Shown piece by piece: positions 1,881 through 45,767 of a stretch of DNA of 64,000 nucleotides. Position numbers and translations under genes: made by a program. Location: assembly GCA_021234155.1 (NCBI GenBank), contig JAJEKV010000002.1:11336725-11400724 (forward strand), in the 5' to 3' direction. Position 1 is the first letter of the stretch; each line of letters begins with the position of its first letter. The stretch comes from Isoetes taiwanensis. Taxonomy: Eukaryota; Streptophyta; Lycopodiopsida; Isoetales; Isoetaceae. The notes below the pieces were generated by a model. The model saw only the letters and a list, made by a program, of their open reading frames with translations, was not told where the DNA came from and searched no databases.

Positions 1881-2204
1881 GCCCGGCCAGGGCAGTCATT
1901 TCTCACATAGATACCTTGCTTCTAGAGGCGCCCGGCCGCCTTCGCTTTCGCCATGCCGAGTTCTCTTCTCCCAAGTTTGCGAACATCTCCATACAACTCT
2001 GTATAGCACTTTCATTTGAAATGGCGAGGTTCAAGATGCGGTTTTCCTGCCTCTAGTGTAGTTATGGTGATTTTTAGAATTAGTTTGTTGCATTTTTTAG
2101 ATGTTGTTAGCTTGTGTGGAAAATGAAAAATAGGTTAGTTGCACTACTTTTTAGATATTTGTTAGGTATATTTTTTGTATTTTTGGGCAAATATGTAGGT
2201 AGTT

Positions 2205-2515
2205 GCTAGTGTTGTGTCTATCTTGGCGCATAGACACAATAGCTTCTACTCCATGCGGCGCATAGACACAATTCTTTTTGTCCTTGCGCTTGGGTAGAAA
2301 GCCATTGTATCTATCTTGGCGCATAGACACAATTTTGTCCTTACCACGCAGAGACAAAAACTTAAAGGTGTCTATGCTCGCATAGATATCAAGGATTTTT
2401 ATGCGTGCATGCATAGAACAAAACCATTTATGTCTATGCACGCATAGACACAATAGGTATTTTGTCTACTTGTCATTAGACAACAACCTAGTGTGTCTAT
2501 GCGCGCATAGGTTTA
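2205..2515. repeat. A-type palindrome array in intron 1 of locus A
   Basis: About nine copies lie in 310 bp, many followed by ACAAT. Examples: GTGTCTATCTTGGCGCATAG at about 2214 and about 2308, TATGTCTATGCACGCATAGA at about 2430, and TGTCTATGCGCGCATAGG at about 2493. They are within the proposed first intron (2041-2604). Degenerate copies retain one half-site (GCGCATAGACA). Confidence 0.8.
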
Positions 2516-2604
2516 TTATGTTTTTGTTTTCACTCTTTACTTAGTCAGTTTGTTTTTGTAGCATTCTTTATTTTTCTGACCTGTTGTGCTTTATATTTCT
2601 GTAG

Positions 2605-3489
2605 GAAGAAACCCAAAGGCAGAAAACCTTCTCAGGATGTGCAAGCTCCTGAAGCTCCCCTACCTTTACCACTGCAAACATGGACCCAGAATGATGACGG
2701 TTCTCTCTTCTGTAGGAACTGTCAATGGTTAATCATTCGAGGTGGTGAATATCCCCAGACACGGCACTATGTGTATCTGTACATTGCCACGAAATCTTCC
2801 TTGCCAAAGTCGAAGTTGACCGGATCAGATTTTAAGAAGTGTGGCAGAATCACCGAAATACAACTTTTCGGCATGGCTACAATAACGATCACCACCACCG
2901 TAAAGGGAGAAGACACCACGTACTTAGTTGACCCGATGTTTTTTAGACTGAGTATGTCCGCGAATGAGAACGCCCAAGAATTCATACAGGCTTGTTTCAA
3001 GCAACAAAAGGTAAGTACTTTAGTTTGTCTATGCGCGCATAGGGTTTTTCTAACTTTTTTTTGCAGGATCTTGTGGAAACACTGAACCTGATGCTTAAGT
3101 GCAAGGATCCACTCTTGAACCCATTCGCGGTGGGTGAAGCAGAAATGAAAGAGCCAGAGGTAGAGCCAGAGGTAGATCCAGATGTAGAGCAAGGGGTAGA
3201 GCCAGAGAGAGATGAACAGTCGGATAAAGAGGTGGAACAGACGGAGAGTTCGGAGGAGGAAGAACTGGATTTGCCAAAAAAGAAGAAAAAAAAGACGGCA
3301 GCGGACTGGCGGAAGGCAAGCCTTGTGACCGGAACAGGGCCTGAATTCAAAGTCAAGGGGAAGGCGAAGAAGTCAGAAAAGGGGGAGTCTTCCAAGTGTA
3401 ACTTGCCCCAAGGACCCGGCACGAAGATAGCCTCAAAGGGCAAGGACGAGGCCTCAAAATCTTTGGAGGACATTGAGAAGAGGTCTTAG
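2605..3489 (+). CDS. Locus A N-terminal exons (open, AT-hook-like start)
   Basis: Exon 2 (2605-3010) opens with KKPKGRKPS, a basic AT-hook or nuclear-localisation-like segment. It continues as a folded-looking domain of about 125 residues (CRNCQWLIIRGGEYP, then VDPMFFRLSMSANENAQEF). It joins in phase 0 across a 56-nt intron (3011-3066, GTAAGT...TTGCAG) to exon 3. Exon 3 holds DLVETLNLMLKCKDPLLNPF followed by a tandem acidic linker (repeats of EPEVEPEVDPD), a KKKKKK patch and a Ser/Lys-rich tail. The reading frame stays open through 3489, so this is the best preserved part of locus A. I do not recognise the N-terminal domain family. The intron is very short for a plant, and an A-type palindrome fills its middle. 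Confidence 0.55.
3011..3066 (+). other. 56-nt intron carrying an A-type palindrome
   Basis: Donor GTAAGTACTT and acceptor TTTTTTTTGCAG join two open exons in phase 0. The centre is TTGTCTATGCGCGCATAGG (about 3025-3043). At 56 nt it is near or below the usual plant minimum. Confidence 0.6.
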
Positions 3490-3529
3490 GGTGCACGGCA
3501 TTATGCATTTTCTGATTGATAGAGTGAAG

Positions 3530-4098
3530 TTGTGCCCAAAGGATCCTCGGTGGTAACAGTTCGCTGGGTAAGAAAGATTTATCCGAACCACCTGGCGGCC
3601 TTAAAAAGAGAATCGGGGGCGGGCCGAATGCAAGCTGTGTCCCCCTGCGTAGTGATTGTCGACCCTAAATCTTTGTAAAACCTTGGAAGAATTTAAGAAA
3701 GAAGAGGTCGACAATTACATGTACATTGTGATTGGTGGAACACACACATTTAAGGCAAAGGCGGTGGAAAGAACTCAAGCAAGCAATCTTCTCATCTCTC
3801 TGCCGTCGTCGTTGGTGTGTGGCGGAAGCAAAGCGCTTGCTATGAGCCACAACGTGAACAAGCGACTCTGAGGTTGAGCATGAGCTTGTCAGATAAAATT
3901 AAATTTATGCACAGAGAATATGATAATTATAGGGCAGAGAACCCCGGAAAGAAAGACATAAAGGATGATCCAGACGCTTATCTCGCTTTAAAGGAGCAAT
4001 GTGCAATTGAGTGCTGTTTGACTTACGATCAAAAAGATGCCAGGACTTCATTGATTAAATACGACAATCTGTTTCAGCTAGCCTTCAGGCACGGCCGG
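3530..4098 (+). pseudogene. Locus A ParB-like domain
   Basis: In shifting frames the region reads RKIYPNHLAALKRE, then CVVIVDPKSL, then LEEFKKEEVDNYMYIVIGGT-H. This matches the order in locus C (EHVKTLLESF, VNVIPFNL, HYYIMNGNHSVLAAQ). The G-G-T-H tetrad replaces the G-N-H-S of the other copies. Downstream, ATLRLSMSLSDKIKFMHREY parallels DRLQLSCEMNDIV of locus C. A stop after PKSL (3674-3676) and a second frame change near 3870 break it. The exon ends at a GTAAGT donor (4099). ParB/Srx-like folds bind or cut DNA, or bind nucleotide. Which applies here is unknown. Confidence 0.5.
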
Positions 4099-4183
4099 GT
4101 AAGTTTCCCTAGTTGTTGTGTTTGAATCTCACCTTACTCCATGCGCGCATAGACACTCAATCTTTTTTGTGTGTGCACCACAG
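4099..4183 (+). other. Intron of locus A with A-type palindrome
   Basis: 85 nt, GTAAGTTTCC to CACCACAG. It contains CCATGCGCGCATAGACACT at about 4140-4158. The next exon reads IWDLQEKIFDMYADGTL. Confidence 0.55.
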
Positions 4184-4618
4184 ATTTGGGATCTGCAGGA
4201 GAAAATTTTTGATATGTATGCGGACGGTACCTTGAAGACAAAGGGGAAGAAGCACGAGACAAAAAAAAAAAGGGAGAGCCCTCAAACAAAAGGATATGAG
4301 TGTGATGCCTTGGAAATCACGGGGCCTCAAAAACATGGACAAAGTTTTGCGAGGTTACGCAAAAAGTTGTCGACAGGCGAGTTCACCTTAGAAGAAATGC
4401 ACGGTACGAGTTTAAGCGGTGAGTACTCTGTCACTTGGCGTAGGTTTTGTCTGTCGATCGATTTGTTTACTGCAGCCAAAAGATTGTGCTACGTGTCGGC
4501 CAACAACTAATGCTCCATTTAAATTCGCGACACTTGGGAAAAAGTTCGGGGGAGCTGTACCCTATTTCCTCGTCAGATGAGAAAATAAAACAATTTGCCT
4601 CAAATTTTACTAAGCTGG

Positions 4619-4881
4619 GTAAGTATTTGCTTGCTTTTTTATCTTGCATCTTACCATTTGTCTATCGCGGCGCATAGACAAAGGCTGAGAATCTTTGCTC
4701 TGCACGCGCATAACAAAGATTTAGTTTTGTCCATGCGCGCGCATAGACAAAACCTCGACTTTAATCTATGCGGCGCATGGACAAAACTAAATCTTTGTTG
4801 ATGCGTGCACAACAAAGTTGATCTTTGCTTGCCATGCACGCATGGAGTTTGCGGTGTACTCACTTTCTTTTTATCTTGCAG
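4619..4881 (+). other. Intron of locus A packed with A-type palindromes
   Basis: 263 nt from GTAAGTATTT to TATCTTGCAG. It holds five or six palindromes or half-sites: about 4660 (CTATCGCGGCGCATAGACAA), 4703, 4728 (GTCCATGCGCGCGCATAGAC), 4767, 4800 and 4833. The repeated spacer is ACAAAG or ACAAAAC. Confidence 0.65.
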
Positions 4882-6020
4882 AGAAAAAAAGACCGGTACC
4901 ACCAGGTTTCTTGACTTTGGTGAAGCAAGCAAAAGATGAAAGAGCCAAGTTGAAAAAGGGTACAAGAGGGCGTCGGCGATTGTCCGAAAAGTGCTGAGAA
5001 TTTTGATGAATTTGGCCACCACTTGTCTCTACCAAGTCTACGGGGATTGTGTGAAGATAGGCGAGTGTTGAAACACTGGTGACTACTCCTTGATCATTGT
5101 CTGACATACCCTCACGGGTTTAAGTTGCCGACGGTAGAGGTGACGACAGCGCCTTTTAAGCACGTGAGAGTTTGACTCTTTTCGTCAAGCGGTGGTAAAG
5201 CTAAACACAAACACCTTTGTGGAGGATCGTTGTCTTTCACTCCACCAACCAAGCGGCTTGGTTCAAGCATATTGAAGGAATTTCGCAATCTTTGGATTCG
5301 AACTGCGATATGGTAAGTCTGCATCTCTTTTAAACTTGGTGTCCCTAATTGTCTCGACTTCTTTCATTTTGTTTTCTGGTGAAGACCAACATCCGTGGCC
5401 ATGGTGGGGGGTGCTAGACTTATAAGCGTATTTGAGCAGATTCACATCGGTTACCCACGGCACACTAGGCACCGGGACCTTACAACACTACAACACCACG
5501 GGGAATGGACTACGAAATGTCTTCGGCTCCCCTGCGGTTACCTGAAGTTGACCGACCAGTTCACGGGTGGCGTTGTCAACCGTACCCGAAGCCCGGCTGA
5601 CTAATCAGCGGGCTTACGGAAATGTTTTTCACAACCGGGAGATCGGGTTGTGGATGCATTTTCGGGCTCGCGGCACGACCATTTCATGTGCTTTGAGGAA
5701 GGGTCGTGAAGCGTATTTTGCGATGGAGTATGATTACGATAGTGTTGCTTTCATTAAGTCAGGATATGTTCTTTAATGAACTTGCACGATGAGAAACAAG
5801 AAGTGGGTGTAAAGGGCGGTGGCGATCAAAGCAGGAATAAGCGGTTGAGCCACGGATGCACGCATCGGGCAACCCCGATCACCAAGCGGAGTATGTTGAG
5901 TTGTTGCGGTGGTAGATAAAGAACACGAGGTGGAAAAACCAGGAAGAGGAAGAGGAAGAGGAGGAAGAAGCGGATCCGAACAGCGGTGAAGAACACAATG
6001 TTTCGATGATGACCCCTTAA
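4882..6020 (+). pseudogene. Locus A methylase C-terminal region
   Basis: The exon from 4882 reads EKKRPVPPGFLTLVKQAKDE and then a basic GRRR segment, before decaying. From about 5635 two overlapping frames together give a methylase motif I (DRVVDAFSGS in one frame) and, after a +1 change near 5665, the following helix and acidic strand-end (GTTISCALRKGREAYF then AMEYD). This is the S-adenosylmethionine pocket of beta-class (IV-to-I order) N6/N4 methylases. The catalytic DPPY-type motif expected around 5100 is not readable. A poly-Glu tail at about 5941-5975 and the end SMMTP precede the TAA at 6018. Confidence 0.5.
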
Positions 6021-6136
6021 AGATAAGGAGGTCCCCATGACATTTAAAATTGTGTGTCCGATTATAAAGCTGAAAAAATAACATTTATTGTTAAATATTG
6101 ACTTTCAAAAAGAAATAAATGCTGTTAAAAAGGGGA

Positions 6137-6164
6137 GCATGTCTATGCGCGCGCATAGACATGC
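6137..6164. repeat. Perfect 28-bp A-type palindrome
   Basis: Arms GCATGTCTATGCGC and its exact reverse complement, with no spacer. It is the longest perfect member of the family and lies about 115 bp after the locus A stop. Confidence 0.9.
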
Positions 6165-6261
6165 CTTTCTTCTTTAAACTACACTTTGGATGAAAAACGC
6201 CCTTGTATCATTATTTGCACTTAAATGATGACTTTTTTTAAAATGTGGCTTGTTTAAGCGG

Positions 6262-6290
6262 GGTGCATGTCTATCGCGCATAGACATTCT
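6262..6290. repeat. A-type palindrome
   Basis: ATGTCTATCGCGCATAGACAT, a variant with one base lost in the left arm. It is the last A-type member on the right side of locus A and probably marks the end of that element. Confidence 0.7.
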
Positions 6291-6499
6291 TATCTATTTT
6301 ACATCATATTTTGGCCTTGTATCATTTTTTGCGGTTTCTTTGATGCTTCTAACTGTTCTTAGTATTGTGTTTGTGTGATCGATGCCCAGTCAAGTGAAAA
6401 GCGTTTAAAATACTACAAAAACAACCTCCTTTTAATTATAAATGTTGTACTTTGTTTGTTTGTTCTAAAAATGCACTTTTTAAGGTCAAAGGACCGTTT

Positions 6500-8141
6500 A
6501 TCTAAATGTTTTTTCTTAAGATATGCCAAAAGTACCAAATTTTGGGGTTTTTGAAAAAGGAATCTTTTGGGCCTTAATCGCACTCTGGTCATTAGTGCGA
6601 TTGATCCAAATCTTGTTTACCTTGTATTATTCGCCGCTTCTTGATTGGCCTTTTCCTGCTGGTGTTTGGCTTGCCGCACTCACGGTATTGCCCTACGCGG
6701 TGGTGTATCGATCTGCGTATGGTTCCTTAAACACCGTCCCGGCTCACGATGTTATTGACATCCACACTAAAATTTGAAGAAGGTCAAGTCTTTCGGTTCT
6801 CGAGAAAGAACTCTGCGGAACCTATAAGTGTAAATCTTTCGAGGTTCTACTCGGCATCTTACGTCCCCAACCGACACACGAGCTGGCGGTGAGGCGAGAA
6901 TGGTTGCCATTGATGATGTAGAACCTCATACTAGCGAGTCGATTCTTGTGACCATGGTACTAGGCGCTTTGTATCACGGATCAAAGGGCACCACATCTGC
7001 GGTGAAAGGCGGATGGGGATCTTGACAAATGACTTTACCACGGTTCCTAACATGTTGGGATTTACAACTTCGTCTTTGTCATGTTAGGAGGTGCCTCTTC
7101 CATATCCCGGATGGATATTTTTTACGATATATGTCACACCTAGAGGAAACATGTGGCCGTCTTTCTTTGTATTTTTTAGAGTTTCTTACGCCAACTCCTC
7201 CTCGGCATCACGGTCCATGCCCAGTTCGAAGGCACCTCCAAACTTTCCATTTTCTTACGCTTTCGACCCTCATTTCCTTCTTTGTTTCCCTCTTCCTTTT
7301 TAGGCGGAATGCTATCAGCCGTCGATCACGGTCTGCTTTACCTCTCCAGATGGGAGGATTTAGTATCACTAATGGTTCTCTCTGAATCTGTTTGGCGGGG
7401 ACATGATAGGAGAACCGATCGATAGGAGGAGACTTGGGGCTGACTTGGGAGGAGACTGGCATTTTCCTCGTCTTTCTTTTGATTCTCTTCCTCATGCTCT
7501 GTCCCTTCCATTTGGACTTCCTTTGGTTTGGCTTTTCTTCCCTTGGCTTGGCTTGCCTAAGGTTTGGCTTTTCCTTGAAATCTCACAGCCGAAGCCAAGT
7601 CGTCCATTAGAAGCGGGCATATTACAAGAGGTCTTGGCTCGACAATATGTGACACAAAGTTCTTTGATCCGTCCATAGCTGAGCGGAGAATGCCAAATCC
7701 TCTAAGTAGCTTCGGTAGTGCCATTAATACCGGTTGCCTCTCTGTTTTTCATTATGAAGGCAGCGGCCCAGCCTTTTCTTTTAGCGGTATCACGGTCCTT
7801 GATCTTTGGATTCCATCATCGTGGATCGTTAAAGCTGCCGATCCATGCGATGCAGGTCAATCGCCGACATTCACGGGATCCTCCACTGTGCAACCAAGGA
7901 AGTCTAATCTTCCCACTTTTTTCACCCCGCATGTTGACAATGATGCCAAGGCGCATCACAGCGTCTTGCTCACCACTTCTTGACTTTGTGAGGAGGCAAA
8001 GTTCTCTCCTCTTGTCCCCCTTTGTGGATTGACCCCTTCCTCAAAGGGAATTGCCACGACAATTTCCATGCACCATGGCCTTTCGGCCATGACCACGGTC
8101 TTCTCCGTCACTACGTTTTGGGCCTTGGACGCCGGCTGCAC
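6500..8141 (-). pseudogene. Locus B: second ParB-like gene remnant
   Basis: Read on the minus strand, an exon begins after TTTGTGCAG at about 8142. It contains TEKTVVMAERPWCMEIVVA and, after a frame change, GIIVNMR; that seven-residue string also occurs in locus C. A basic stretch follows (RKRIKRKTRK, about 7495-7470). The ParB-like part is next: DPHPPFTADVVPFDP (about 7000) and FYIINGNHSRLTA (about 6925-6890). These parallel DPHPVFTLVNVIPFNL and YYIMNGNHSVLAA of locus C. A stop and frameshifts interrupt it. No methylase was found, so the copy seems cut off near 6.5 kb, tail-to-tail with locus A. Confidence 0.55.
6523..6777 (+). CDS. Small hydrophobic open frame, doubtful
   Basis: An 84-codon frame starting with ATG at 6523. 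It has one or two hydrophobic segments (FWALIALWSLVRLIQILF and VWLAALTVLPYAVV). No family is recognised, and it lies opposite the expected 3' part of locus B. It may be fortuitous. Confidence 0.15.
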   Translation: MPKVPNFGVFEKGIFWALIALWSLVRLIQILFTLYYSPLLDWPFPAGVWLAALTVLPYAVVYRSAYGSLNTVPAHDVIDIHTKI

Positions 8142-9784: not shown

Positions 9785-9945
9785 GCCAAATGGCGTTGGT
9801 GCGCCATTAGATCAAATAGCGCAGCCGCGCCATTTGTCTCCAAATAGCGCAGCGCTTTTACTCAAATGGCCCGGCTGCGCTACTTTGTGGCAAATAAATG
9901 GCTAGTGCGCTATTTGAACAAATGCGCACCCGCCATTTGTATGCA
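9785..9945. repeat. C-type palindrome cluster 5' of DUF7869 gene copy 1
   Basis: At least five copies: AAATGGCGTTGGTGCGCCATT (about 9788), AAATAGCGCAGCCGCGCCATT (about 9814), AAATAGCGCAGCGCTTTT (about 9841), AAATGGCCCGGCTGCGCTA (about 9865), and AAATGCGCACCCGCCATTTG (about 9919). They lie between locus B and the DUF7869 gene. Confidence 0.75.
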
Positions 9946-9984
9946 TTTTAATGAATATTTTATGCTCATTTCAGCGGGGTTTCT

Positions 9985-10280
9985 AACAATGTGTGTGTCA
10001 TTGCATGCTTGCAGGAAAAGGACCTTGCAGAACTTCCTCTGTGGGGACGTGGTTGTTGCTAGGGGGCATGAACTGCATAGAGGGCACATACATGGAAAGA
10101 ACATTGACTACTTTAAGAACGTCGTCGTGGAGGTTACTGAAGCCATAATTCCATCCCATGTGCTTCCATTTCCATGTGCAGGTGCGGATAACGTTGCTGA
10201 AGCCGTAGGCACACTTATCGAATGGCCTAGACATGACGTGAGAATCTGTCCAGATGCTGCACCTGTATCATCATCTTAAT
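9985..10280 (+). pseudogene. DUF8039-like fragment at the front of DUF7869 copy 1
   Basis: The frame reads CGDVVVARGHELHRGHIHG, then VTEAIIPSHVLPFPC, then AEAVGTLIEWPRHDVRI. The spacing of VARG, LP-P, the A-G and I-WP elements matches the plant transposon-associated DUF8039 domain as I know it. It runs without a gap into the DUF7869-type gene (LNKKLIHKEVGAVV), whereas copy 2 has a different N-terminus there. The join at about 10,275 therefore looks like a recombination or exon fusion. Confidence 0.45.
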
Positions 10281-12145
10281 AAGAAGCTTATACATAAAGA
10301 AGTTGGAGCAGTCGTTGAAGAGCTTACAGGAACAACTGTAGCCTTGTATATGGAAAAGGGAATTTCCAGATGTTAGCATTGCAAAAAATACAGCCTTCTC
10401 TAAATGCAACATCTGCGTGGTAATTAAGCAAAAGCTGGAAAAAACAAAAGATACAAGAGAGAGACGAAATCTTGCAATTCAACGTCGGGCTCATATGCTA
10501 GAGCAGCGTTCTTGCAGAAGTCAATATTGGCATTGGAGAGCATTGTCTGGCCCGGTCTCGAGAAAAATCATCTATGTATAATACATGATAAGATGGATCA
10601 GGTTAAGACTTTAGTGCCTAGAAGTCATCATCTAGCAAAATCTGTATGGAGAGGTGATCGCTTGAAGAGCAGTTTGACAGGAGCTCTAACTCATGGGCAT
10701 GGTGGTCGTGCCTATGGTCATTTCTCACTTGATTTATGGAAAGATGATTCAAACTTCCATATTGGTTCACTTTCTAGGATATTGCATAACTTGGAATTGG
10801 TACAAGAGGACAAGATAGGTGACTTATGTGGAAGTAAGCCCTGCGGATTGCAAATGGATGCAAGCGGTCAAGGATACCAATCCTTTGAAGAACAAACTTG
10901 CTTCTATGGCGAAGTATTGCCAAATGCTTCAACTACAACGAATCTGAGGTGTTCAACCCTCTCCCCGAAATCTCTATTTGCAACTTGATAATGCATCAGG
11001 GCAAAACAAAAATAGGTATGTCTTTTCATACTTATCTTATTTGACTTGGCTTAAGGTCTTTGATGAGATCCAAGTGGGCTTTATGATGGTCGGCCACACC
11101 CATGATGATATTGATGCTTTATTTGGAAATTTTTCGACCTTGATGAGTTCATCGGATGCTTTGACACTACGAGCTACTTTACTTGTTCAGCAAGTGCAAT
11201 GCGAAATCTCAATTCCATACTTTATTGATGAAGTTCCAAATTGGAAGGCTTTTGTGAAGGGATTCATCACGATAAGAATAACGCACTGGTTGGGCATCTT
11301 GAACCATTGCTCTTCAAATTTAAGATGGCGGGGAGATTGGCCTGTTATGCAATACAAAATCGTCCTACACATAAAGAGTGGCTTCCGGCCAGATTCTCGG
11401 GAGTTAGAATGTGGAAAGAGGATGAACATGGTCAGCCAATGATACCAAGTGGTGTGCCACAAAATATTCCTCCTAGACCAACATTGAAAGATCTTCCGGG
11501 GGTTGAAGGATAGCATCAACAAATACATCTCCCTATGGAAGGACATATGTAAGAATCAAGAAAGTAGCTTGTTTGCAAGGCAATACACGGCAAGTGTTGA
11601 GTATTGGAGCCCGACTTCTTATCTCTTTGGAGGATGTTGCTCGGGGCGTCCTCAAAATGATGCATTTTGGCCACAAACAAGACAAGCTCCTCTAGGACAA
11701 AGCAGATTTGTTCCGAGGTCGGCGATATCTGCCTTGGTCACACGACCTTTACCATCTTATTGTGGCCGTCGGATGGCGAAAGTCGGTGTTGCCTCTTGAA
11801 GAGTTTGATCCTCACGTACATGTGACAAAGGGTATGTTTGTTCTAGTCAGATCTGGAGATGATAACACTGCCACTTGGTTAGGATATGCAGAGGAGAATG
11901 CTGTTCTTGATCCAGAATCTACATATTTTGGCCATATTTTTGTATCGTGGTGGAAGCCTACTGGAGGGGACTACAAAGGCTGCTTGACTAAGCGTTGGCG
12001 GCCTAATCCTTCCGATCCTTCAAGGTACGAAAATTTAGATGCTATTCATTATGCTTGGGATGCCAATGGCAAGAGGCCGAAAACAAATCCAAATTTGAAA
12101 TATATTGTAGACATGTGGAAAGACATATCACATTGTTCATCTTAA
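10281..12145 (+). pseudogene. DUF7869-type transposon gene, copy 1
   Basis: The frame breaks several times (stops near 10,373-10,460 and 10,986, frame changes near 11,300 and 11,760). The family pattern is nevertheless clear: LCIIHDKMDQ (10,571), THGHGGRAYGHFSLD (10,690), LDNASGQNKNRYVFSYL (10,981), VGHTHDDIDALFGNFS (11,090), and a C-terminal domain ending WKDISHCSS at 12,145. DUF7869 proteins are widespread in plants. Their acidic and His residues (LDN, HTHDDID) suggest an RNase-H-like nuclease or transposase, though this is not proven. It lies divergent from locus B with C-type palindromes between, repeating the layout at locus C. Confidence 0.7.
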
Positions 12146-13945: not shown

Positions 13946-15449
13946 CAAGGTATACTATATAAAAATTATTCCAACTTGTCTTCAGAATTCCAACTTTAAT
14001 GAAACTCTGCTTTTTTTCGTAAGCCGTATTCTATCATAGACATACCGACATTAAAATCACAACTTCAAATTGGGGTTTATTAGAATGGTAAATTATTCAA
14101 CATGGGTCTTGGCAGTTAAAAGAAAGATAGATAGTATTTTTACGTCTCTCTCTCACACACGCACACACATTTTTAATTATGCCTATTGTCAAAGGTTTGT
14201 TCTCCATAGAGGAACTCTAAACTGACTTTGGCTTCAACTGTGTCGATTGTTATATGAACTTACCAAGTGCTCTAACGTTTAACATGATTTCAGTTTTCAA
14301 GGTGTTGTTATCTTTGATGTAGAGGAGGGTTGCGAAGTAATCCGTTAGCTTGATCTGGATAACAAAAAAGTAGTAGTGTGGACAATACAAAAGTGGGCTT
14401 TGTAAGATAAGTGTGTCCACAAAAAACAATACAATTCTTAAAAGCCACTACATAAGAATGTATAAGAATCTTAAGATTGGAAGGTTCAAATTATCTTTGT
14501 TGTTACACATCCTTCAAAATTCATGATTGCGTATCAATATTGAAGAAGCAATTTTGTTAGCCCGCAACCGTATCAATGTTTTATATTAATAGTTAAGAAA
14601 GGATTTCTGGCGTGCTTGGGGCAAGGGAGGGTAGGACTTTCAAGCATGGGCATTATGGAAATAAATGCTATTAAATGGAGGTCTTGCTTGTCATGCAAGT
14701 GCTCTCGTAGGTATACAATCTCCAGTTATCTGAAATCCGATATGAAATTAACATGCACATATATCAATTACAGGAACTAGACATGCATGCTATACCACAA
14801 TGGTTAAGAAGAGGTTTATATGATGTATAGTAAGTTGCAAAGGGTTAGCAATGCCTTGTATACAAGGGTAGGTGCAGTTGGTACAACACTTTTCGTTTTC
14901 TGGAATAGGACGAATACACTTATAGATCTTGACAGGATATATATGAGAAGGAAAAAGGGATTTTGTTAGAGGATAGGATGTCAAGAACTTGAAAGTAAAA
15001 GACAATTGGCGCAACCATGGGAACATTTACCAAGATGAATAGTTCTTCCGAAACGTATTGATCATCTTCCAATTTGCATGGTCACCCTTGTCCAAAGCTT
15101 TAGATGATACTTCTTATGGAAAGTGAGTAAGATCATAAGCATATCAAATAATAGCATTGTTTGGCATGCCACATCTTATGCAGTCTATGAGTTCTTTGTG
15201 GTAAAATCAAAGGCAAGATCGACATTTGATATTGTAGTGTCTATAAGATTGTGAGCCAATATTCAGTATTGACTCGTTGCTTCTCGATTGGATACATTGC
15301 TGTTAATATCATTGCGTAATTACGTGATAATCTGGCGGTGCTTTTGCCAGCATGGTTGTCTCCCTCTACATTTCTCATGTCCTTCTCAATTGAAAGTCAT
15401 TTGAGATACTTTATCAACTTGTTTATTTAGTGATGTACACATAAGGAAT

Positions 15450-20646: not shown

Positions 20647-22880
<2,234 letters not shown>

Positions 22881-26125: not shown

Positions 26126-26144
26126 AACAACAAATAATATAGCA

Positions 26145-26582: not shown

Positions 26583-26598
26583 AAAAGAAGCAAGAGAA

Positions 26599-27288
26599 AT
26601 GGAAGACATTCCTTACAGATCATTAATTGGAAGCTTGTTATATATAGCAAACAATACCAGACCGGATATAGCTTTCATAGTTAATGTTCTGAGTAGATAC
26701 AATCATAATCCAGGCAGACGTCATTGGTTGGCAGCAAAGAAAATATTAAGATATTTGAAGGGGACAAAAATGGTTGGAATTGAATACAACACTGATAACT
26801 TAAACTTAGTTGCTTACTGTGATGCAGACTGGTGTGGTGACCCTGATGAAAGAAGATCGACATCAGGTTATTTATTGATGCTAGGTGGTGGCCCAATAAG
26901 TTGGAGGAGCAAAAAACAGTCCTCCATAGCACTCTCAACTGCAGAAGCTGAATATGCATCATCAACCTTAGCTGCTAAGGAGATAATATGGACTAGAAGA
27001 TTTTTGGAAGAATTAGGCCTCAAACAAACAGAAAGTACTATTCTATACAGTGATAGCCTTAGCTGCATAGCGATGACGAAGAATCACATTGTGAATGAAA
27101 GGACTAAACATATAGAAATGGCAGTGCACTTTATAAGAGACATGGTCAGTAAAAATGTGATTCAGTTGGAACACATAAGGACTGAGAATCAGCTGGCTGA
27201 TATTTTTACTAAGGTTCTTAACTGTAACAGGTTCAGAGAATTAGCAAGCAAGATAAGTTGCAGGATTGTTGAGAAAACTATAAGATGA
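26599..27288 (+). CDS. Copia RNase H region, open
   Basis: 229 codons open to a TGA. RNase H catalytic residues are visible in YCDADWCGD (Asp), STAEAEY (Glu) and YSDSLSCIAM (Asp). It ends shortly before the purine tract and LTR. In the intact element this is the C-terminus of Pol, degrading RNA in the RNA-DNA hybrid. Confidence 0.8.
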   Translation: MEDIPYRSLIGSLLYIANNTRPDIAFIVNVLSRYNHNPGRRHWLAAKKILRYLKGTKMVGIEYNTDNLNLVAYCDADWCGDPDERRSTSGYLLMLGGGPISWRSKKQSSIALSTAEAEYASSTLAAKEIIWTRRFLEELGLKQTESTILYSDSLSCIAMTKNHIVNERTKHIEMAVHFIRDMVSKNVIQLEHIRTENQLADIFTKVLNCNRFRELASKISCRIVEKTIR

Positions 27289-32785: not shown

Positions 32786-32795
32786 AATGATAAGT

Positions 32796-33219
32796 GTGTT
32801 AGAAATACACTAAGATTGGCAAAGAATTTGATATATGATGAAGAAGTAAGAATACGATAGCCCAAAGGCAAGCAAGAACACGAGACAGATGTCTAGAAGG
32901 TTAAAGATTGGCGTTGAACCGGAATACCCATCATTGTGTCGAAGGCCCCTTTATATACTCGAAAAGGGGCCCCTTTTCTGCACGAATGCATGTGGAATAT
33001 TTGTGCATATGCATCTAAGTTCTGGAATGTTTTAGAACCTCCTAGATGACAGCGCTCATGTACGGAAGATGCAAGTTAATGTCATGGCTAAAGTGTGTGA
33101 CTCGCAAACTGTGTTGTAAAGTTCAAATCTTTATGTTGCAAAGTACTCCATTTGCATCGGTAATAATTATCTTTTGTACATATGAGTTTGATATGGATAC
33201 TCTTATTATGGTCGTCACA
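32796..33219 (-). repeat. Gypsy LTR (LTR A)
   Basis: In minus orientation it begins TGTGACGACC and ends about CTAACACA. It shares the AAGGCAAGCA(A/G)GAACACGAGA and CTTTATATAC segments with LTR B (34.2-34.7 kb), in the same orientation. TTTATATAC is a TATA-like promoter candidate. Confidence 0.6.
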
Positions 33220-34722: not shown

Positions 34723-34734
34723 CCATTCCCCTCC

Positions 34735-37560: not shown

Positions 37561-37749
37561 CTGAAGCAGAGCTAGATGAAGGATGAACTCAAATAGCAAA
37601 TGCTGAACTAGGATCTTGCCTACTAGATCTGATAAATTTGTGAAGAGAGATCTTTGAGATACGGAGCTGAGGGCGTGAAGAAGCCTCTATGGAAGCAGGA
37701 GCAACTGCAAGATCAGGAGCAACTGCAACAGGAACTAGGGCAGGAATTG

Positions 37750-38515: not shown

Positions 38516-41500
38516 ATTTGATATCAAAGCACAGTTCAGAGCCATGGCTGATCCAACATAAGGAATGGCACAACCAATTGATGGTTTGCCAGCCGTGGCA
38601 TTGACCGATGGTATAATACCAGCACTCCAGGATATCCACCTAGAGGATCTGCTTGTACTCGACTTTGAGACATTACTACAGGCATGACCCAGTGCAGAGT
38701 TATCAGTACCTCCTATAACTCCAGTTAACCCAGTACCTACGGAAACGACAATTAATGTACAACCTCTACTAGAAACGAACGCCCTGGGGGTATTTCAGTT
38801 CCACAAGGAGGCTTAACAACTAGTTGGGAAGGTGCTGTTATTAGTGGAGTAGGCTCTGGGAGCAGTACTCCTACAACACAAATACTAATGACTAAACAGT
38901 AGTTACTACTACATCAAGGGGTTCCCATGATGAGAAACCTTTGGTTGCTAAAACTTTGGATAACATACAAAGGCAAATGAACCTGTGGATTATTGAGAAC
39001 GCTGCCCGAGAGCAACGCCTTAAGGAATCCCATAATCGGCTCATGCAGAATTCTAGAAGCGTGTGTTGGAAACAACTCTACAACCCAAGCGGTATGAGGT
39101 GCTGCGAGGGGACGAGCGGGTACGAGCGCACCACTTGGGGTTGGTCGCACTGTGCCAGATACAGCCAACGCAGCTATTGGTGAGCCTTCTGAAGAGACCT
39201 TGAATGGACTTTCTGAGGAGGAGATCAAGGCTTTTGAGAAGATGAAGATGTCAGAATTCGATAGAACTAGTATGCCAGAGGATGCGATGCTCTGGTTTGG
39301 TCGCATGAAGTTATATTATACGGCCACTAAGAAAAGTGATGCAGCAAAGGTGTTGCATGCTTCCTTTAAGCTAAAAGGTGCTGCTGATTCATGGTGGGCT
39401 ATTCACACTGACAGTGGAAAGACCTTTCGGTCTTGGACCGATTTTTGTAAACGATTTAAAGATGAGTATGCACCTCATTTTGATAGTCGTCATGCTCTGA
39501 TATCATTCAGGGAGTCGGTGCAAATCGGGACTTTACAAGAGTATGTTAGTAAGCTCCGCGAGTTGTTTGCGAGACTTCCCGACCTTAGCCCTCAGATGAG
39601 GGTAGACCACTTTGTGAACGGTCTAAAGGAGACTAGTATTAAGACACACCTCTTATAAGCGGAACCCAAAGGCTTCGAGGAAGCAGTTGAGCTTGCAAGA
39701 AAATTAGTGTCTTGAGGAACCTCAAAAGACCAAGAAAAGTTTTGATTGGAAATCAAAACGAACTAAAAATTCTGCAGATGGAGTGTCATCTGCTAAGAAA
39801 AGAAAATGGAATCAATCAAACAAAAGGTCGTGGTGACATCCAAATGAAAAAAGGTAGCTATAAAGTGTTATAACCGCCGTGCCATGGGTCATTACGCGAG
39901 GGAATGTCTTAAGCCACAAAAGCCAAAGAAAATGGTAGCTGCAACGGCCGAAACACCATCGGATATTGAGGATGTGAGCATGCTGTCGGCTATCGCGAGG
40001 GAAGAAAGCATGGTAAATGTTTCTTCTAAAGTTTTCTTTGGTAAAGTTATTCGTGTCTAGGTAGAATGAAAGAAAAGAATGTGGTTGTTCTTATTGATTC
40101 TACGAGCACTGGTAATTTTTTGTTGCAGACCTACCAGGGGAGCTAGGCCTTGAGCTGACGAAGGTGACTCCATGTGTGGTTAAAGGAGAGGCGGGCCCTC
40201 AAGTTCAGCGTTGGGATCAAGAAGCGTGAACTTGATACTTCAGGATAGAGGTTCATCTAGAGCAGTACAGTCTGAAATTGATGTTGATTTAATCAATCTA
40301 GAACGTTATGATGTCATTTTGGAGATAAAGTAGTTTCAAACTGCATGTCCACTCATTGACTGAGCATCCCATGTATTAACTTTTGAGTTAGAGGACTCTA
40401 AGTCTGTTAATATACAAGGATCAGCTTATGTGGGGTCGGGGAAATTGTTATCGGCCACTAAGGCCAAAGCTACTTTCAGAGTGAATAATAATCAAGTTTT
40501 TGGAATATATGTCTATAATGATGATATATGTGTAAAAACTTGTAATTCACTTGTAGACCAACCAGATCCAACTTCACCTTCAACTACTTGATCTTTTGGA
40601 AAGATACAAGAATGTGTTTTTCGGGAATTGCCTATAGGGCCACCTCCGTCAAGGGGAGTGGAGCACGAGATTGATCTTGAGTCTGGAACTAAACCAATGG
40701 CAAAAGCACCTTACCGCTTGAGTTCTCTTCGGTTAGAGGAAGTGAAAAAGCAAGTTAAGGAATTGCTTGAAAAGCGGTTTCTCCAGTCAAGTAAGTCTCC
40801 TTTATGCTCAAAGGCCGTTGGTTAAGAAGAAAGATGAAACTATGCGACGCAGCATAGATTATCGTGTTTTAACAAAGCAACAATTAAGGATAGATATCCT
40901 TTACCACGAATTGATGATATCTTAGATCGCTTGGATGGTGCAACTTAGTTCACCAAAATTGATCTAAAGAGTGGATATCATCAAATTAAAATCCGTGAGG
41001 GTGATGAACCGAAGAGTGCCTTTCAAACTCATCAAGACCACTATGAGTTCTTAGTCATGCCATTTAGTCTCACTAATGCTCCCGCCGGCTACGTTCATGA
41101 GATTAATGAACCAAGTATTCGCTGATTACTTGAATAAATCAGTTGAAGTATTCTTGGATGATATAAAATGTATACTCGAACTCATTAGAAGAACACTTTC
41201 AACATCTAGAGCACGTGCTTAAAGTGTTTGCGAGCCAATAAGTTGTATGCCAAAATTTCTAAGTGTGATTTTCAAGCAAATGGTTGCTTATTTGGGCCAC
41301 ATTTTGTCGGGCGAGGGAGTGTCTCCAGATCCTAGAAAAGTATGAGAAGTACAAGAATGGATTCAACCTGAGACTGTTCATGAGTTGATAAGTTTTCTCG
41401 GATTGGCTACCTACTACCGAAAATTTGTGCCTAAGTTTTCTAAGGTAGTAACCCCGCTCACCGATCTTTTGAGAAAAAAATCAAGAGTATGTGTGGGGTC

Positions 41501-41934
41501 AACCAAAGAAGAGGCCTTTGAAAGGATCGAAAAGTCTTTTGGTGAGTAGCCTAGCATCAAGGTACCACCCTAATGAGTCATTTGAAGTATACACAGATGC
41601 TTGTGGGCAAGCTCTGGGAGTTGTGCTTATGCAAAATCAAGCAGAACAGAATTATACAATATATGAGCAAAAACTATTGGCTATAGTTCATGCATTAAAG
41701 ACATGGCGAGATGTGGTACCAGTAAAGAGCCGCCCAAGTTTATGGTATATACTGACCACAAGCCCTTAAGATTCTTGCAAAGCCAAGCTAGGCAGCTTGA
41801 CTTTTTGCATGACCTAGAAAGAATAATACAGTTGTGGATGCCTTATCTAGGATCAAAGCGTTTAACTACTTCGATGGTAGGGGAGAATGATCTCTTCCAA
41901 AGGATTAAAGAAATCACAATTTCATTAAAATGAG
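38516..41934 (+). mobile_element. Ty3/gypsy internal region, plus strand, decayed
   Basis: Gag is at 39,152-39,658 and a zinc-knuckle remnant (GHYARECLKPQK) near 39,880. A protease-like VVLIDSTSTGNF is near 40,085. RT has KAPYRLSSLRLEEVKKQ (40,700), [20 protein letters not shown] (40,950), [12 protein letters not shown] and VFLDDIKC. RNase H has FEVYTDACGQALGVVLMQ (41,580). Numerous stops and frame shifts occur. It ends near 41,934, and no integrase or 3' LTR follows; C-type palindromes of locus C begin at 42,003. The element inserted into the 5' part of the minus-strand gypsy and was later truncated. Confidence 0.8.
39152..39658 (+). CDS. Gypsy Gag capsid region
   Basis: An open frame of 168 codons with the retrotransposon Gag pattern: MLWFGRMKLYYTATKKSDA, ALKLKGAA-type segment FKLKGAADSWWA, SWTDFCKRFKDEYAP, and YVSKLRELFARLPDLSPQMR. 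Gag forms the virus-like particle in the cytoplasm. A TAA at 39,656 separates it from the zinc knuckle, so the polyprotein is broken. Confidence 0.75.
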   Translation: MPDTANAAIGEPSEETLNGLSEEEIKAFEKMKMSEFDRTSMPEDAMLWFGRMKLYYTATKKSDAAKVLHASFKLKGAADSWWAIHTDSGKTFRSWTDFCKRFKDEYAPHFDSRHALISFRESVQIGTLQEYVSKLRELFARLPDLSPQMRVDHFVNGLKETSIKTHLL

Positions 41935-42000: not shown

Positions 42001-42060
42001 ATTATGGCGCCATTATGTGTATTCGTGCATGTGAAGTGCCATTATTTGGCGCTATTAAAA
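42001..42060. repeat. C-type palindromes 3' of locus C
   Basis: TTATGGCGCCATTATG and GTGCCATTATTTGGCGCTA, just beyond the proposed end of locus C (42,205). They mark the left part of that element, next to the gypsy truncation. Confidence 0.6.
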
Positions 42061-42204
42061 ACATGACAGTGCAAAAATTACAGCTAAGAACAAGATTAAT
42101 TTTATGACAAGTAAGATTTGCATATCCATCGACACTTACACTACGAGCTCGATAAATTTAATATATACAAAAAATGTTATGTTTACATTTGAGATGCACA
42201 TAAT

Positions 42205-45200
42205 TTACAAGACTTTCTCCACTATATCAGGCTTCTCAGTGCTAGCAATAGGATTAGATGGCAAATCAAAAGCATGGGTAGTAAGGTCAGCTTCATCGAC
42301 ATTATCGAGTTCGAACTTAGCGTCTTTAATGGCCTTGTAGTCAACATCAGGAATCTCAGGTGATTTTGCTGCTTGGCTGGTTTTTGCACGTTCCTCAACT
42401 CCACGTTCAACAGCACCTCGATGCTGGGACACAGTAACTGCAGCCATGATAGGATTGAGCACGCGGTTTAGCCTATCAGCAATCCCCTTCAGGAGCTGCT
42501 GTTTGACGGGATCATGTTCGAACACGATGCAGAACCATTTGTAAATCAATGCAGCTCTGGCAAAAGCAACACAAGAGAAGTAATCAAACACTCCTGTACC
42601 TGGTTGTACCAGCTCTTGCACGAGGTAGGAACATGTTGCAGGACCCAGCTGACTTCTCATTATGATTTCTCTGGCAAGCCTTGCCAACTGTACCTGAATC
42701 TGTTGTGAAAGAGTTTCTCCGTCATAGCCTCACTCTCCCCGTCTGCCTCTTCTTCAGTTTGAACAGGAAGTGGTGGAAGATGCTGGGGGTGATCATCATA
42801 GGAAAACCTGAGGTCAATCTCTTCGACAATAGTCAGGGCAAGGGACTGGATCTTGGTGGCGTAGATGAGAGCATGCGGTTCCAGCACCCCTGTTGGTGCT
42901 GGATTCTTGTACTCATCCTCGTACCTGCCAATATAAACTCTGGATCTAGAGTCTAGGTTATCCAACACTGAGAAGACGACAAAGTTGTGTCCTGTGCGTG
43001 CGAAGCAAACTATCCAAGAAGATTCAACAGTCGTGTTCTTGACGACAGTGTCAAAGAACTTGGATAGTGTCGATTGGTCCCACATTGGAGTTAGGGTCCG
43101 TGTATCCAGAACAATCAAAGAGGCTGGCACAGGAGTGCATTTGATCTGTCCTCTGCTATCAGTAAGCTCAACCTCAGAAGCGAACTCTTTTCTGTCATCC
43201 TCCGCATAACTTTATTTCTTATGACCCTTGCCAATGATGGAGGTATGTTCCCAAAAATTCCCTCCTTGGAAATGCCATCGTTGACCCATTTGTTATGTAG
43301 TGTCCCTATGGCCTTTAAGCTGTCATCGTCAAAGCCTAGCACAGTGGAACAGAAGTCTTCGAAGGAGGTGAACTTCCTTTGGAAGTTCTCCTTGACATAC
43401 TAAAAAATTTCCTTCTTCAAGAACGCCAATGTCTCGAGAGTTCTAACCTTCGTCTTGAAAAAGTAGTCACCTGTGTAATCAGTGGAGACTTTAATGTATA
43501 CCTTCTCGTCAAGCACCTCCTGGAACAAGACGCGGTAATCCTCATAGTACATGCCTCTTAGGCACCGCAGAGATAAGTCCGACCAAGTAGTCACTATCTT
43601 TGGCCCGTATATTGCCCTCTGTTGTCCTTGAGCTTGCAAGTTTTCCATTGGTTCCATTGTGGACTAGAACAGCTTGAAAGATATCCTCCGCATGAAGACC
43701 CACCCGCTTTAAGTCTTTGGGCTACTTACCACGCATGGCAATTTCGCTAGAGCCAAAAACCGTTGAATGCAAAGGACATTTATTAGCAACCAATGTAAAA
43801 GGCATCGCATCACCATTTCAATGGTAAAACATAAAACTCATTATGTAATCGAACCCAAGGAAACCTATAGTCAAGACAATCGCTATGAAATGGCATCAGG
43901 CGGTGCCATTTGATACGAATGGCGCCGCGGTGCCATATGATGAAATGGCGCCGCGCCATTTCACATCATATGGCACCGTGGCACCATTTCATATCAAATG
44001 GCGCCGCATCGCCATTTCATATCAAGACATAAATGAAAATAACCAACAGAATTTTAAAATGGTGCCGTGGCGCCATATGATGTAAATATTATACCTTATA
44101 AGGTTCCGATCGCTTCTGCCCACGGCCCGAAGGATTAGGCTTGCCGCAGCGCGCGACGGTGCCTCGCCGATAGGTGATATTGTTAATGCAAGTTTCTTTG
44201 AAGATGGTCTTCACCACAATGTCATTCATTTCACAACTAAGCTGCAGGCGATCCTGCTCGTTCACCTCTCCCAACAACACCTGGCATGTCCGGTGCTTGT
44301 GTATTTTGGCCATCTTCTCCTGGGACTTGGCAGTTCCTAGCTTTCTACAAACCAGCTGTGCTGCCAGTACCGAGTGGTTACCATTCATTATATAGTAGTG
44401 CAACCCCATAAGATCGTCTGTTTTCCAGAAAATTAATTTCTTTGTATTGAGATTGAAGGGGATCACATTGACGAGTGTGAATACCGGGTGAGGATCACGC
44501 TAGAAAGATTCTAGTAGTGTCTTGACATGTTCCATATTTCTTGGCCTGGAAGTCAAATTTGGAGAGCCCTGGTATAAACGGAACACGTTCATTTTCTTTG
44601 TAAATGTAATGCCGAGAGGAAAAAGATGACGATGGTCACAAATTTTATTCAATGTCGTTTCTGCCATTTTCCTACTCGGACCTTTCCACCTTCAGGCCTT
44701 GGGGCACCTCTAACAAGTGGCCCGGCTATCCGCAGTTTTATTGATTGGGATGGCACGGACCCCTGGACTTGTGGTGCCGAGGTACCCCCTCACCGCTTGC
44801 AAAGTGGGACCACCACCAACACCACCATCAGCATCGGGCTCCTCGCCGCTGTGGAGAGGCCACAAGAATTGCAGGAGGACTAGGCTGTGGACTAGGAGGT
44901 CGAGGGCTTCGTCTTCTTTGTTTCTTTGTAGTGCCCTCAACATCTGATGTGCCATGCCTATGTTTTCTTATTGTTTTCTTCTTTTTCCTCCTCTCTTTTC
45001 TTCCTGCTTCTTCCTTGAACTATCTTCCGTTCACTCCTCTTATTTTCTTCTCCTTCTTGCTAGATTTCTTGCTTCCCTTTCCATCCCTTTCCTTCTTGCT
45101 TCCCTTCCCCTCCTTGTCCTTCTTTTCCTTTTGATGTTCTTCTGTAGCTTTTGCTTCTGTTTTTTTAACCTCTTCATCAGTATCAGAAGAGTCCTTTTCA

Positions 45201-45767
45201 AGAGTCGGAACCCCTTGACAACACGAAGTCTTAGTTTTTCTCGAGCTCGGCCAAGCAAAGGTCCACTAAGCAAGGTGGGTTCTGCGAGTTCAAGGCCTTT
45301 TACAACCAAAGAAGGAGAGTTCTTCGACTCGTTCATTCGATTCCGAAGAATGTTGTATCCCCTTAAAATCTCGACATGGCCTTGGATGTCTGCCTCTTGG
45401 AAGCTCTTGTAAGAGGGAAGAGTCCATCCCTGTCGCTTAGCAGAGCCACTGACATTGGAAATACTTGCAAGCATCATTGTGGGATCATAAACCCGTCAGT
45501 CCACATAGTAAATATTTATCTTAACGTCCTCTGTGTTCTCAACAACTATGCGGAGCCATTCCTCACGCCCCTTCTTGAGAGCTGTCCTCATATTAACGAT
45601 AATGCCTGGCTGGTAAACTCCTTTTGTGTTGTCGGACATCTTCTTTGTAAGTAAACATAGCTCTCTTCTAGTGCACTCTTTGAACTCGAAGGAGCAGATG
45701 CACCAGGCCCATTCATTCAGTAGAACAGACCTCTCGGACTGGAATGTTGTTTCTGCACGCAACACAA
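42205..45767 (-). pseudogene. Locus C: ParB-like domain plus DNA methylase gene, decayed
   Basis: Minus strand, best preserved copy. Exon 45,767 to about 45,040 has GIIVNMRTALKKGREEWLR and, past one in-frame TGA at about 45,503, VYDPTMMLASISNVSG and GHVEILRGYNILRNRM, then a Lys/Arg-rich linker. The ParB-like region (about 44,600-44,100) has EHVKTLLESF, a stop, DPHPVFTLVNVIPFNL, HYYIMNGNHSVLAAQLV and DRLQLSCEMND. An intron with six palindromes follows. Methylase exons run from about 43,657: RCLRGMYYEDYRVLFQEVL, LIVLDTRTL (motif IV position), FFDTVVKNT, then the motif X-I region (LVQELVQPGTGVFDYFSCV and VFEHDPVKQQLLKGI) and an acidic tail to 42,205. Motif order IV then I marks a beta-class N6/N4 methylase. 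DPPY-type and G-rich residues are lost, so it is probably inactive. Confidence 0.65.
43885..44082. repeat. Array of six C-type palindromes in a locus C intron
   Basis: Six copies in 200 bp, at about 43,887, 43,917, 43,942, 43,968, 43,994 and 44,056. The copy at 43,942-43,962 has perfect 10-bp arms (GAAATGGCGC) around one base. Variants swap GGCGCC, GGTGCC and GGCACC, mostly in compensating pairs. They lie between the ParB exon and the methylase exons. Confidence 0.85.

What the first reader, a model, noticed from the sequence alone, without database searches (positions are those of the whole stretch)
2021..45767. Three copies of a ParB-like gene (two with a DNA methylase C-terminus) in a plant genome
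Seen directly: loci A, B and C share a ParB-type core (NYMYIVIGGTH; FYIINGNHSRLTA; YYIMNGNHSVLAAQ). B and C also share DPHP-x-FT...V-PF and GIIVNMR. A and C add a methylase motif I region (VVDAFSGS; GVFDYFSCV) and an acidic strand end (EYD; EHD). Known: ParB-nuclease plus N6/N4-methylase fusions are a bacterial and phage theme. Inference: this is a spliced, nuclear, multi-copy family, probably a mobile element gene acquired long ago, not described as a plant transposon system as far as I know.
Basis: partly seen in the sequence, partly recalled or inferred. Interest (0 to 1): 0.92.

Follow-up and report, generated by a model that had tools for sequence, protein, structure and literature searches.

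The report
Transposon carrying a ParB–methylase-like gene
Two kinds of jumping gene in this genome carry a gene that looks like a bacterial ParB DNA-binding protein joined to a DNA methylase, and each kind is filled with its own short palindromes that may be what that protein recognises.

Summary
But these are not three copies of one gene. B and C are decayed copies of a multi-copy DNA transposon family with a DUF7869 gene (probable transposase) and, facing away from it, a spliced gene with a ParB-like domain and a methylase-derived tail. For the B type, facing TIR pairs lie 11–20.6 kb apart, and 10 of 10 pairs fetched have 4-bp target duplications. The tail has lost the catalytic motif (DPPY absent in 30 of 30 loci read) yet is under purifying selection. 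A is a second, hairpin-ended mobile family, inserted into B; its relative L071 keeps an active-looking methylase (PF01555, 1.4e-17) after a ParB-like domain. C-type and A-type elements each hold many copies of their own palindrome and none of the other's. Best reading: ParB-type, sequence-specific self-recognition proteins that work like VANC anti-silencing proteins or ParB–parS. The ParB fold rests on weak profile evidence; the AlphaFold model failed.

The parts
1..6617 (+). A-type mobile element (its left end lies outside the window; right end approximate, decayed), inserted in the B element
   Evidence: 22 other matches run from window base 1 to beyond 2,270; end just after the hairpin, with B sequence following
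2654..3073 (+). A gene, N-terminal exon region (93% identical to relative L071)
3076..4122 (+). A gene, region with the ParB-like domain (frame-broken; IGGTH motif at 3713-3745)
   Evidence: hhalign of relatives against phage ParB
4103..4402 (+). A gene, linker exon region
4709..5906 (+). A gene, N6/N4-methyltransferase region (decayed here; open in L071: PF01555 1.4e-17)
66..6283 (.). 18 CTATGCGC sites (both strands counted), from the palindrome TGTCTATGCGCGCATAGACA; none in the rest of the window
6576..6602 (+). A element near-terminal hairpin AATCGCACT...AGTGCGATT
6603..7224 (-). B gene, ParB-like exon (frame-broken)
7602..8108 (-). B gene, N-terminal region (GIIVNMR)
9848..12142 (+). B element, DUF7869 gene, probable transposase, in several frames (Pfam core in 10948-11439, 4.6e-27; extent by eye from open frames)
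13990..14012 (+). B element terminal inverted repeat; the partner end lies about 4.8 kb left of the window (C1018:11331905)
14013..14016 (.). B element 4-bp target-site duplication (TTTT)
45292..45777 (-). C gene, N-terminal region (GIIVNMR)
44092..44670 (-). C gene, ParB-like exon (one stop)
42265..43771 (-). C gene, methylase-derived tail (catalytic motifs lost; frame changes)
41912..41927 (-). C element right terminus, similar to the B-type TIR
42004..45869 (.). C element, 7 surviving ATGGCGCC sites (both strands counted)
46026..47108 (+). C element, remnant of the divergent DUF7869-side gene (46603-47073 similar to 10275-10638)

Best explanation
B and C are remains of a TIR DNA transposon family. 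Shown for the B type: exact TIRs, 4-bp target duplications and a DUF7869 gene; shown across the family: a divergently placed gene, split by an intron, with a ParB-like domain and a tail descended from an amino-methyltransferase that lost its catalytic motif. A is a different, hairpin-ended mobile element carrying a version of the same fusion with catalytic motifs kept. Inferred: DUF7869 is the transposase. The ParB-type protein binds the palindromes that fill noncoding parts of its own element type and marks self DNA, most likely to keep the element's promoters from being silenced (as VANC proteins do) or to assemble the transposition complex. In B/C the tail would be a non-enzymatic contact domain; in A it may still methylate DNA at the bound sites.
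For: Mobility: 498 matches to the B-type end pattern with up to 2 mismatches (reversed control 0); among the 100 exact ends listed, 20 of 21 neighbour pairs under 25 kb face each other as TIRs, 11.0-20.6 kb apart. Perfect 4-bp TSD in 10 of 10 pairs fetched (of those 20), the window's own B element included. C-type right end within 8 bases of one position in 29 of 30 loci. Two-gene unit: 33 of 150 listed ParB places have one of 150 listed DUF7869 places within 10 kb upstream, 31 of 33 divergent, about 0.3 expected. Domains: PF01555 in A, CcrM as best solved structure 6.8e-11; profile comparisons with shuffled-column controls: B/C ParB vs phage ParB 1 of 150, A ParB 0 of 150, B/C tail vs phage methylases 0 of 100, B/C tail vs A methylase 0 of 60 (E 0.04, 202 columns), B/C ParB vs A ParB 0 of 60 (E 5.8e-4). 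Function kept: median dN/dS 0.17 (ParB exon, 20 copies, 189 pairs), 0.39 and 0.23 (tail, 8 and 5 copies). Self-recognition: ATGGCGCC 16-49 times per C-type locus (both strands; 9-25 full TGGCGCCA palindromes) against about 0.2 expected, 1 in about 7.0 kb of five flanks; 2 of 221 sites in the two exon spans, 17 in the intron; 59-bp tandem units. CTATGCGC 18 times in A, 0 in the other 57 kb of the window, 0 in the six C-type loci.
Against: Pfam ParB (PF02195) is not hit by any piece nor anywhere in the genome, although it rings in 10 of 14 control genomes. hhalign probabilities are low (1-7%; 29% for B/C vs A ParB), from shallow alignments. The AlphaFold model was useless (pLDDT 39). No binding, expression or methylation data. 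Left end and TSDs of the C type were not found. In the decayed window B element no 9-mer stands out (6 against a simulated maximum of 4; two of three control stretches also exceed theirs, 8 against 5 and 5 against 4). The 11-kb B-type copies were not shown to hold the ParB gene; of the 20 TIR pairs one (C33) was seen to hold a listed ParB place.
Confidence: 0.55

Rival explanations
1. The ParB–methylase gene is a passenger (captured host or horizontally acquired gene) with no role in the element.
For: Gene capture by plant DNA transposons is common (recalled; a review was seen only in the listing). Many 11.0-11.5 kb B-type TIR pairs may lack the gene (not tested).
Against: Same position and orientation beside DUF7869 in diverged subfamilies; purifying selection between copies; the same fusion in two different element types, each with its own palindromes.
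Confidence: 0.15
2. Enzymatic self-methylation: the fusion writes 6mA or 4mC on its own element, as retrotransposon DNMTs are suggested to self-methylate.
For: A-type relative L071 keeps DIPYG and FSGSGTT and resembles CcrM.
Against: In the B/C type the catalytic motif is gone in 30 of 30 loci read and the SAM motif altered in 23 of 23, so it cannot be the general function.
Confidence: 0.15
3. The likeness to ParB is convergence around a short Gly-Asn-His turn; the first exon has another DNA-binding fold.
For: No Pfam or PDB sequence hit, low hhalign probabilities, no usable model.
Against: Domain-long, in-register profile matches with shuffle controls for two proteins, both followed by a methylase-type domain as in a phage fusion.
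Confidence: 0.18
4. The palindrome arrays are only hairpin-forming micro-repeats that expand in noncoding DNA and have nothing to do with the protein.
For: They sit in tandem 59-bp units whose number differs between copies, as any minisatellite would.
Against: Element-type-specific, nearly absent from flanks and absent from the other type, and present at several separate places including the intron in 5 of 6 C-type copies.
Confidence: 0.25

Closest known systems
VANDAL transposons with VANC anti-silencing proteins (Arabidopsis; PMC5735166, passages read)
   Same: Element-coded non-transposase protein; short element-specific motifs arrayed as tandem repeats in noncoding parts and introns; motif differs between families
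   Different: Vandal belongs to MuDR (passage in PMC12730594); here DUF7869 and a 4-bp TSD; the passages seen do not describe VANC as ParB or methylase
Retrotransposons with C5 cytosine methyltransferases (PMC5890265, abstract and outline seen)
   Same: Methyltransferase gene carried by eukaryotic mobile elements
   Different: C5 DNMT in retrotransposons, shown active; here an amino-methyltransferase type in DNA elements, with catalytic motif lost in B/C
DNA transposons carrying TET/JBP genes in fungi (PMC12730594, passages read)
   Same: DNA-modification gene carried beside the transposase in DNA transposons of several superfamilies
   Different: Dioxygenase, not ParB–methyltransferase
Phage ParB–methylase fusion (Javan65 QBX22271.1, present in both reference alignments; Javan476 QBX28978.1, methylase by annotation only)
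   Same: ParB-type N-terminus followed by a beta-class methyltransferase in one protein
   Different: Phage gene without introns; A's ParB exon has no tblastn match in phages even at E 10
Sola, Ginger and other superfamilies with 4-bp TSDs (Ginger1 4 bp from PMC10045372 passages; Sola recalled)
   Same: 4-bp target duplication, TIRs
   Different: Transposase comparison could not be made; DUF7869 appears in no paper of the library

Membership tests
TIR DNA transposon (class II) | terminal inverted repeats | tested here: met
   B type: exact 23-base ends facing each other, 20 pairs; C type: only one end found
TIR DNA transposon (class II) | constant-length target-site duplication | tested here: met
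   4 bp, 10 of 10 pairs fetched out of 20; C type not tested
TIR DNA transposon (class II) | DDE/D transposase | tested here: inconclusive
   DUF7869; acidic residues kept in an alignment of three; no fold or activity evidence
ParB/Srx (PF02195) | profile match above the curated cut-off | tested here: not met
   no hit
ParB/Srx (PF02195) | distant profile homology in register | tested here: met
   (1 of 150 and 0 of 150 shuffles; hhalign probability 4% and 7%)
ParB/Srx (PF02195) | ParB fold, parS binding, CTP binding | not testable with these tools
   model failed
N6_N4_Mtase (PF01555), A type | profile match and motifs IV and I | tested here: met
   L071 1.4e-17, DIPYG, FSGSGTT; the window copy is decayed
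N6_N4_Mtase (PF01555), B/C type | profile match and catalytic motif IV | tested here: not met
   no Pfam hit; DPPY absent in 30 of 30 loci read; homology by profile only
VANDAL/MuDR with VANC | MuDR transposase | tested here: not met
   only DUF7869 found by Pfam in the pieces scanned
VANDAL/MuDR with VANC | protein-bound motif arrays in noncoding DNA | tested here: inconclusive
   arrays present; binding not testable
Helitron/Helentron (for A) | 3' hairpin near the end, no TIR, Rep/Hel protein | tested here: inconclusive
   hairpin then GATCCGTCACCTTGTT in 9 of 10 loci, one base different in the tenth; no facing pairs among 55 matches (by eye); Rep/Hel and left end not seen

The most novel reading that the evidence does not exclude
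A bacterial-type ParB–parS recognition system has been recruited by eukaryotic transposons: each element type codes a ParB-type protein, with a living or dead methylase tail, that loads on arrays of its own palindrome and spreads over the element to shield it from silencing or to steer its transposition.
Probability: 0.33. Interest if true: 0.92.

Novelty: new variant of a known kind. Interest (0 to 1): 0.78.

Why it matters
It would add a second, independently built class of transposon-coded self-recognition proteins to the VANC type, made from prokaryote-style parts. The matched pair of protein and palindrome makes the question of how an element singles out its own DNA directly testable. It also gives a host element and a likely role to DUF7869, a domain without a paper in the library searched.

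Tried and rejected
Family and PDB sequence searches for the ParB parts: nothing relevant. AlphaFold on the window's ParB exon without an alignment: pLDDT 39, discarded. The second job was not used: the window's other pieces are frame-broken, and loci from the whole-genome tool are not among the inputs the tool names. Relatives elsewhere: none for the B/C ParB in viral contigs or bacterial genomes, none for DUF7869 in viral contigs, no phage match for A's ParB exon, only distant methylases for A. A TIR for A: no facing pairs. C-type left end by the right-end 18-mer: no facing pairs, by eye, in the 100 listed of 582. CpG ratios: uninformative. Rfam and tRNA on the window: none. The idea that B and C are copies of A was rejected: different ends, palindromes and copy numbers.
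Full report
What was checked. Six-frame reading shows three broken genes: A (+) about 2.65-5.9 kb, B (-) about 8.1-6.6 kb, C (-) about 45.8-42.3 kb. Single broken pieces hit nothing relevant in Pfam, so the case was carried by the rest of the genome, held as G000 (1.658 Gb, 1110 contigs, unnamed; the window is C1018:11336725-11400724). I did not establish the species or that it is a plant.

Copies. The ParB exon of C gives 150 listed places, with 150 of 3,584 first-look candidates scored; many are open for 400-600 codons without a stop. The tail of C gives 152 matches, 150 of 2,228 candidates scored. The DUF7869 piece of the B element gives 150, 150 of 7,935 scored. First-look numbers are unscored and are not copy numbers. 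Locus A is rarer: 225 candidates, and 9 matches besides the window at 91% or more over at least 98 of 116 residues.

Anatomy of the B/C element. In the six C-type copies fetched (L061-L066) the gene has one long exon with an N-terminal region and the ParB-like domain, a GT-AG intron (by sequence, 6 of 6), and a second exon that ends in the methylase-derived tail. A DUF7869 gene (Pfam 4.6e-27 in the window, 2.4e-31 in L061) lies on the other strand about 6 kb upstream: of 150 listed ParB places 33 have one of the 150 listed DUF7869 places within 10 kb upstream, 31 of the 33 divergent, 1 has its nearest one downstream, with about 0.3 expected for both sides together. In the window the same layout is seen twice: B with 9.85-12.1 kb, and C with 46.0-47.1 kb.

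Ends. The right end of the C type is sharp: in 29 of 30 loci homology stops within 8 bases of one position...GGAATCACGAAATTTCTCATTTTAATGAAATTGTGCTT in the commonest form, followed by unrelated DNA, except that L045 (the window copy) and L046 share their flank and look like a duplicated segment. L037 stops earlier. The genome holds 486 matches to this end with up to 3 mismatches, control 0. The left end of the B element was read from where DNA homology stops: 36 of 39 other matches end at query base 1910-1923, and base 1913 is window base 14012 (40 of 2,405 candidates scored). The 23-base end CCAACTTTAATGAAACTCTGCTT occurs 498 times with up to 2 mismatches, control 0; among the 100 exact ones listed, 20 neighbour pairs under 25 kb face each other and one does not. 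Eight hand-picked DUF7869 places lie inside such pairs, and one pair (C33) holds a listed ParB place. One pair is the window's own B element, C1018:11331905-11350736, 18.8 kb, of which the window holds the right 14 kb. I fetched 20-base flanks of 10 of the 20 pairs: all 10 have identical 4-base duplications (TAGG, CTAT, CACA, CATA, TAAT, CCTA, TTTA, TTTG, TTTA, TTTT). So B is a TIR DNA transposon with a 4-bp TSD.

Locus A. 22 other copies run from window base 1 to beyond 2,270, so A is longer than the window shows. Its right end has a strong hairpin, AATCGCACTACAGGTCATTAGTGCGATT, then GATCCGTCACCTTGTT and unrelated flanks (9 of 10 loci identical, one with a single change). There are 55 genome matches to the hairpin and, by eye, no facing pairs: not a TIR element by this test. 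That recalls Helentron-type rolling-circle elements (recalled), but no Rep/Hel gene was looked for beyond the window. A sits directly beside B's ParB exon, inside the span of the B element.

Domains. The A relative L071 carries N6_N4_Mtase (1.4e-17), PHROG methyltransferases (2.1e-22) and CcrM as the nearest solved structure by sequence (6.8e-11), with DIPYG and FSGSGTT. Its upstream exon reads like a ParB core (YIVIGGTHTFKAK ... VGVTDAEAKLLAMSHNV). Against an alignment of eight phage ParB sequences (one, Javan65, is a ParB–methylase fusion in both reference alignments), A gives E 0.005 and B/C E 0.009, in register over 88 and 94 columns; the B/C tail against seven phage methylases gives E 0.006 over 49 columns of motifs X-I; crossed pairs give 0.15 and 0.32 over 10 and 8 columns. 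HHalign's own probabilities for these are low (4-7%). With columns of the target shuffled, the observed score is reached in 1 of 150 (B/C ParB), 0 of 150 (A ParB) and 0 of 100 (tail) cases, and in 5 of 50 and 15 of 50 for the crossed pairs. The B/C tail aligns with the A methylase over 202 columns (E 0.04, probability 1.3%, 0 of 60 shuffles), and the two ParB parts align at E 5.8e-4 (probability 29%, 0 of 60). I therefore take the two genes as the same fusion, distantly related. Against this: no Pfam ParB hit, no PDB sequence hit of note, and the single-sequence AlphaFold model failed.

Dead tail, live gene. At motif IV, 30 of 30 loci L031-L060 have DTRG or a variant and none DPPY/DIPY; at motif I, 23 of 23 sequences read have FSCGSFG-like letters in place of FxGxG. 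These were read by letter patterns, so loci that differ at the anchors are missed at motif I; the set includes the window copy and its duplicate. Yet the exons are constrained: median dN/dS 0.174 for the ParB exon (20 of the 21 stop-free copies of full length among L002-L030, 189 pairs with dS>0.02; 0.148 for the 118 pairs with dS>0.15), 0.386 and 0.226 for two sets of stop-free tails (8 and 5 copies; 4 stop-free ones of other lengths left out). Choosing stop-free copies favours low values.

Palindrome arrays. In the six C-type loci ATGGCGCC occurs 36, 39, 42, 39, 49 and 16 times, both strands counted, against about 0.2 expected; as full TGGCGCCA palindromes 18, 19, 21, 20, 25 and 9. Of 221 sites, 2 (both in L066) fall in the exon spans, 17 in the intron, the rest mostly in clusters upstream of each gene. 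Five right flanks, 7.0 kb in all, hold 1. The core is CAAATGGCGCCATGGCGCCATTTG, in 59-bp tandem units, 3.8 in L061 and 8.7 in L065. The A element has instead TGTCTATGCGCGCATAGACA: CTATGCGC 18 times in window 1-6607, 0 in the other 57,393 bases, 8, 6 and 5 in L067, L071 and the A part of L070, 0 in L061-L066; ATGGCGCC is absent from these A sequences. For A I did not test sites against exons formally; in L071 two sites follow closely on GTAAGT-type donors. Most frequent 9-mer against the maximum of 20 simulations: A 15 against 4, B 6 against 4, C 5 against 4; controls 4 against 5, 8 against 5 (AGCATCACC, in a repeat at 18.2-18.6 kb) and 5 against 4. So the window's own B and C copies, taken alone, would not show the arrays; they are seen in open copies.

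Mechanism. The pattern, an element-coded non-transposase protein plus element-specific short motifs in tandem noncoding arrays including introns, is what PMC5735166 reports for VANC21 and VANDAL21 (passages read), where the protein binds the motif and lifts silencing. ParB proteins bind palindromic parS sites (recalled). I infer that the ParB-type protein recognises the palindrome of its own element type. What follows binding (anti-silencing, transpososome assembly, or in A local methylation) is open; anti-silencing is my first choice because the arrays sit upstream of both genes and in the intron, and the abundant form has given up catalysis.

Literature. Ten searches of the held library, of which I saw listings, showed no ParB–methylase transposon and no paper with DUF7869. 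Nearest are DNMT retrotransposons (PMC5890265, abstract and outline), TET/JBP transposons (PMC12730594, passages), IS481EU/Ginger for TSDs (PMC10045372, passages) and VANC (PMC5735166, passages). Most subscription papers and Repbase were not searched.

Noticed in passing
window 61079-62728 (+): Long open frame with a Replitron HUH endonuclease domain (PF21859, 1.4e-18) after an RG-rich N-terminus.
   Followed up: no
window 49109-50842 (-): Exons of a DDT-domain gene (PF02791 9.1e-17; WAC and WHIM1 only below their cut-offs): a likely host gene.
   Followed up: partly
L045 and L046 (C1018:11379378 and C1018:11175122): The C tail and its flank are repeated about 204 kb away on the same contig (both score 99% over the first 174 query residues, same flanking letters), apparently a segmental duplication.
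   Followed up: no
window 15405-15848 (+), 21966-22346 (-): Reverse transcriptase fragments (RVT_1; 29.2 bits, just under the 29.6 cut-off, and 47.4 bits).
   Followed up: no
window 26022-27288, 31805-32809, 36489-37588, 39098-39658, 54599-57088: LTR-retrotransposon remains. Pfam: gag at 39098, integrase zinc domain at 55735, a sub-cut-off rve at 31805, nothing at 26527; the rest judged by eye.
   Followed up: no
window 28523-30842: Adjacent direct repeats of about 1.16 kb, 94.6% identical.
   Followed up: no
window 46-99: Palindrome kept in at least 12 other A-element copies.
   Followed up: no
C145, C158, C676, C911 and other 10.99-11.5 kb TIR pairs: A uniform short class of the B-type transposon; many DUF7869 matches share one score (182 bits), which looks like recent spread. 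Whether these copies lack the ParB gene was not tested.
   Followed up: partly
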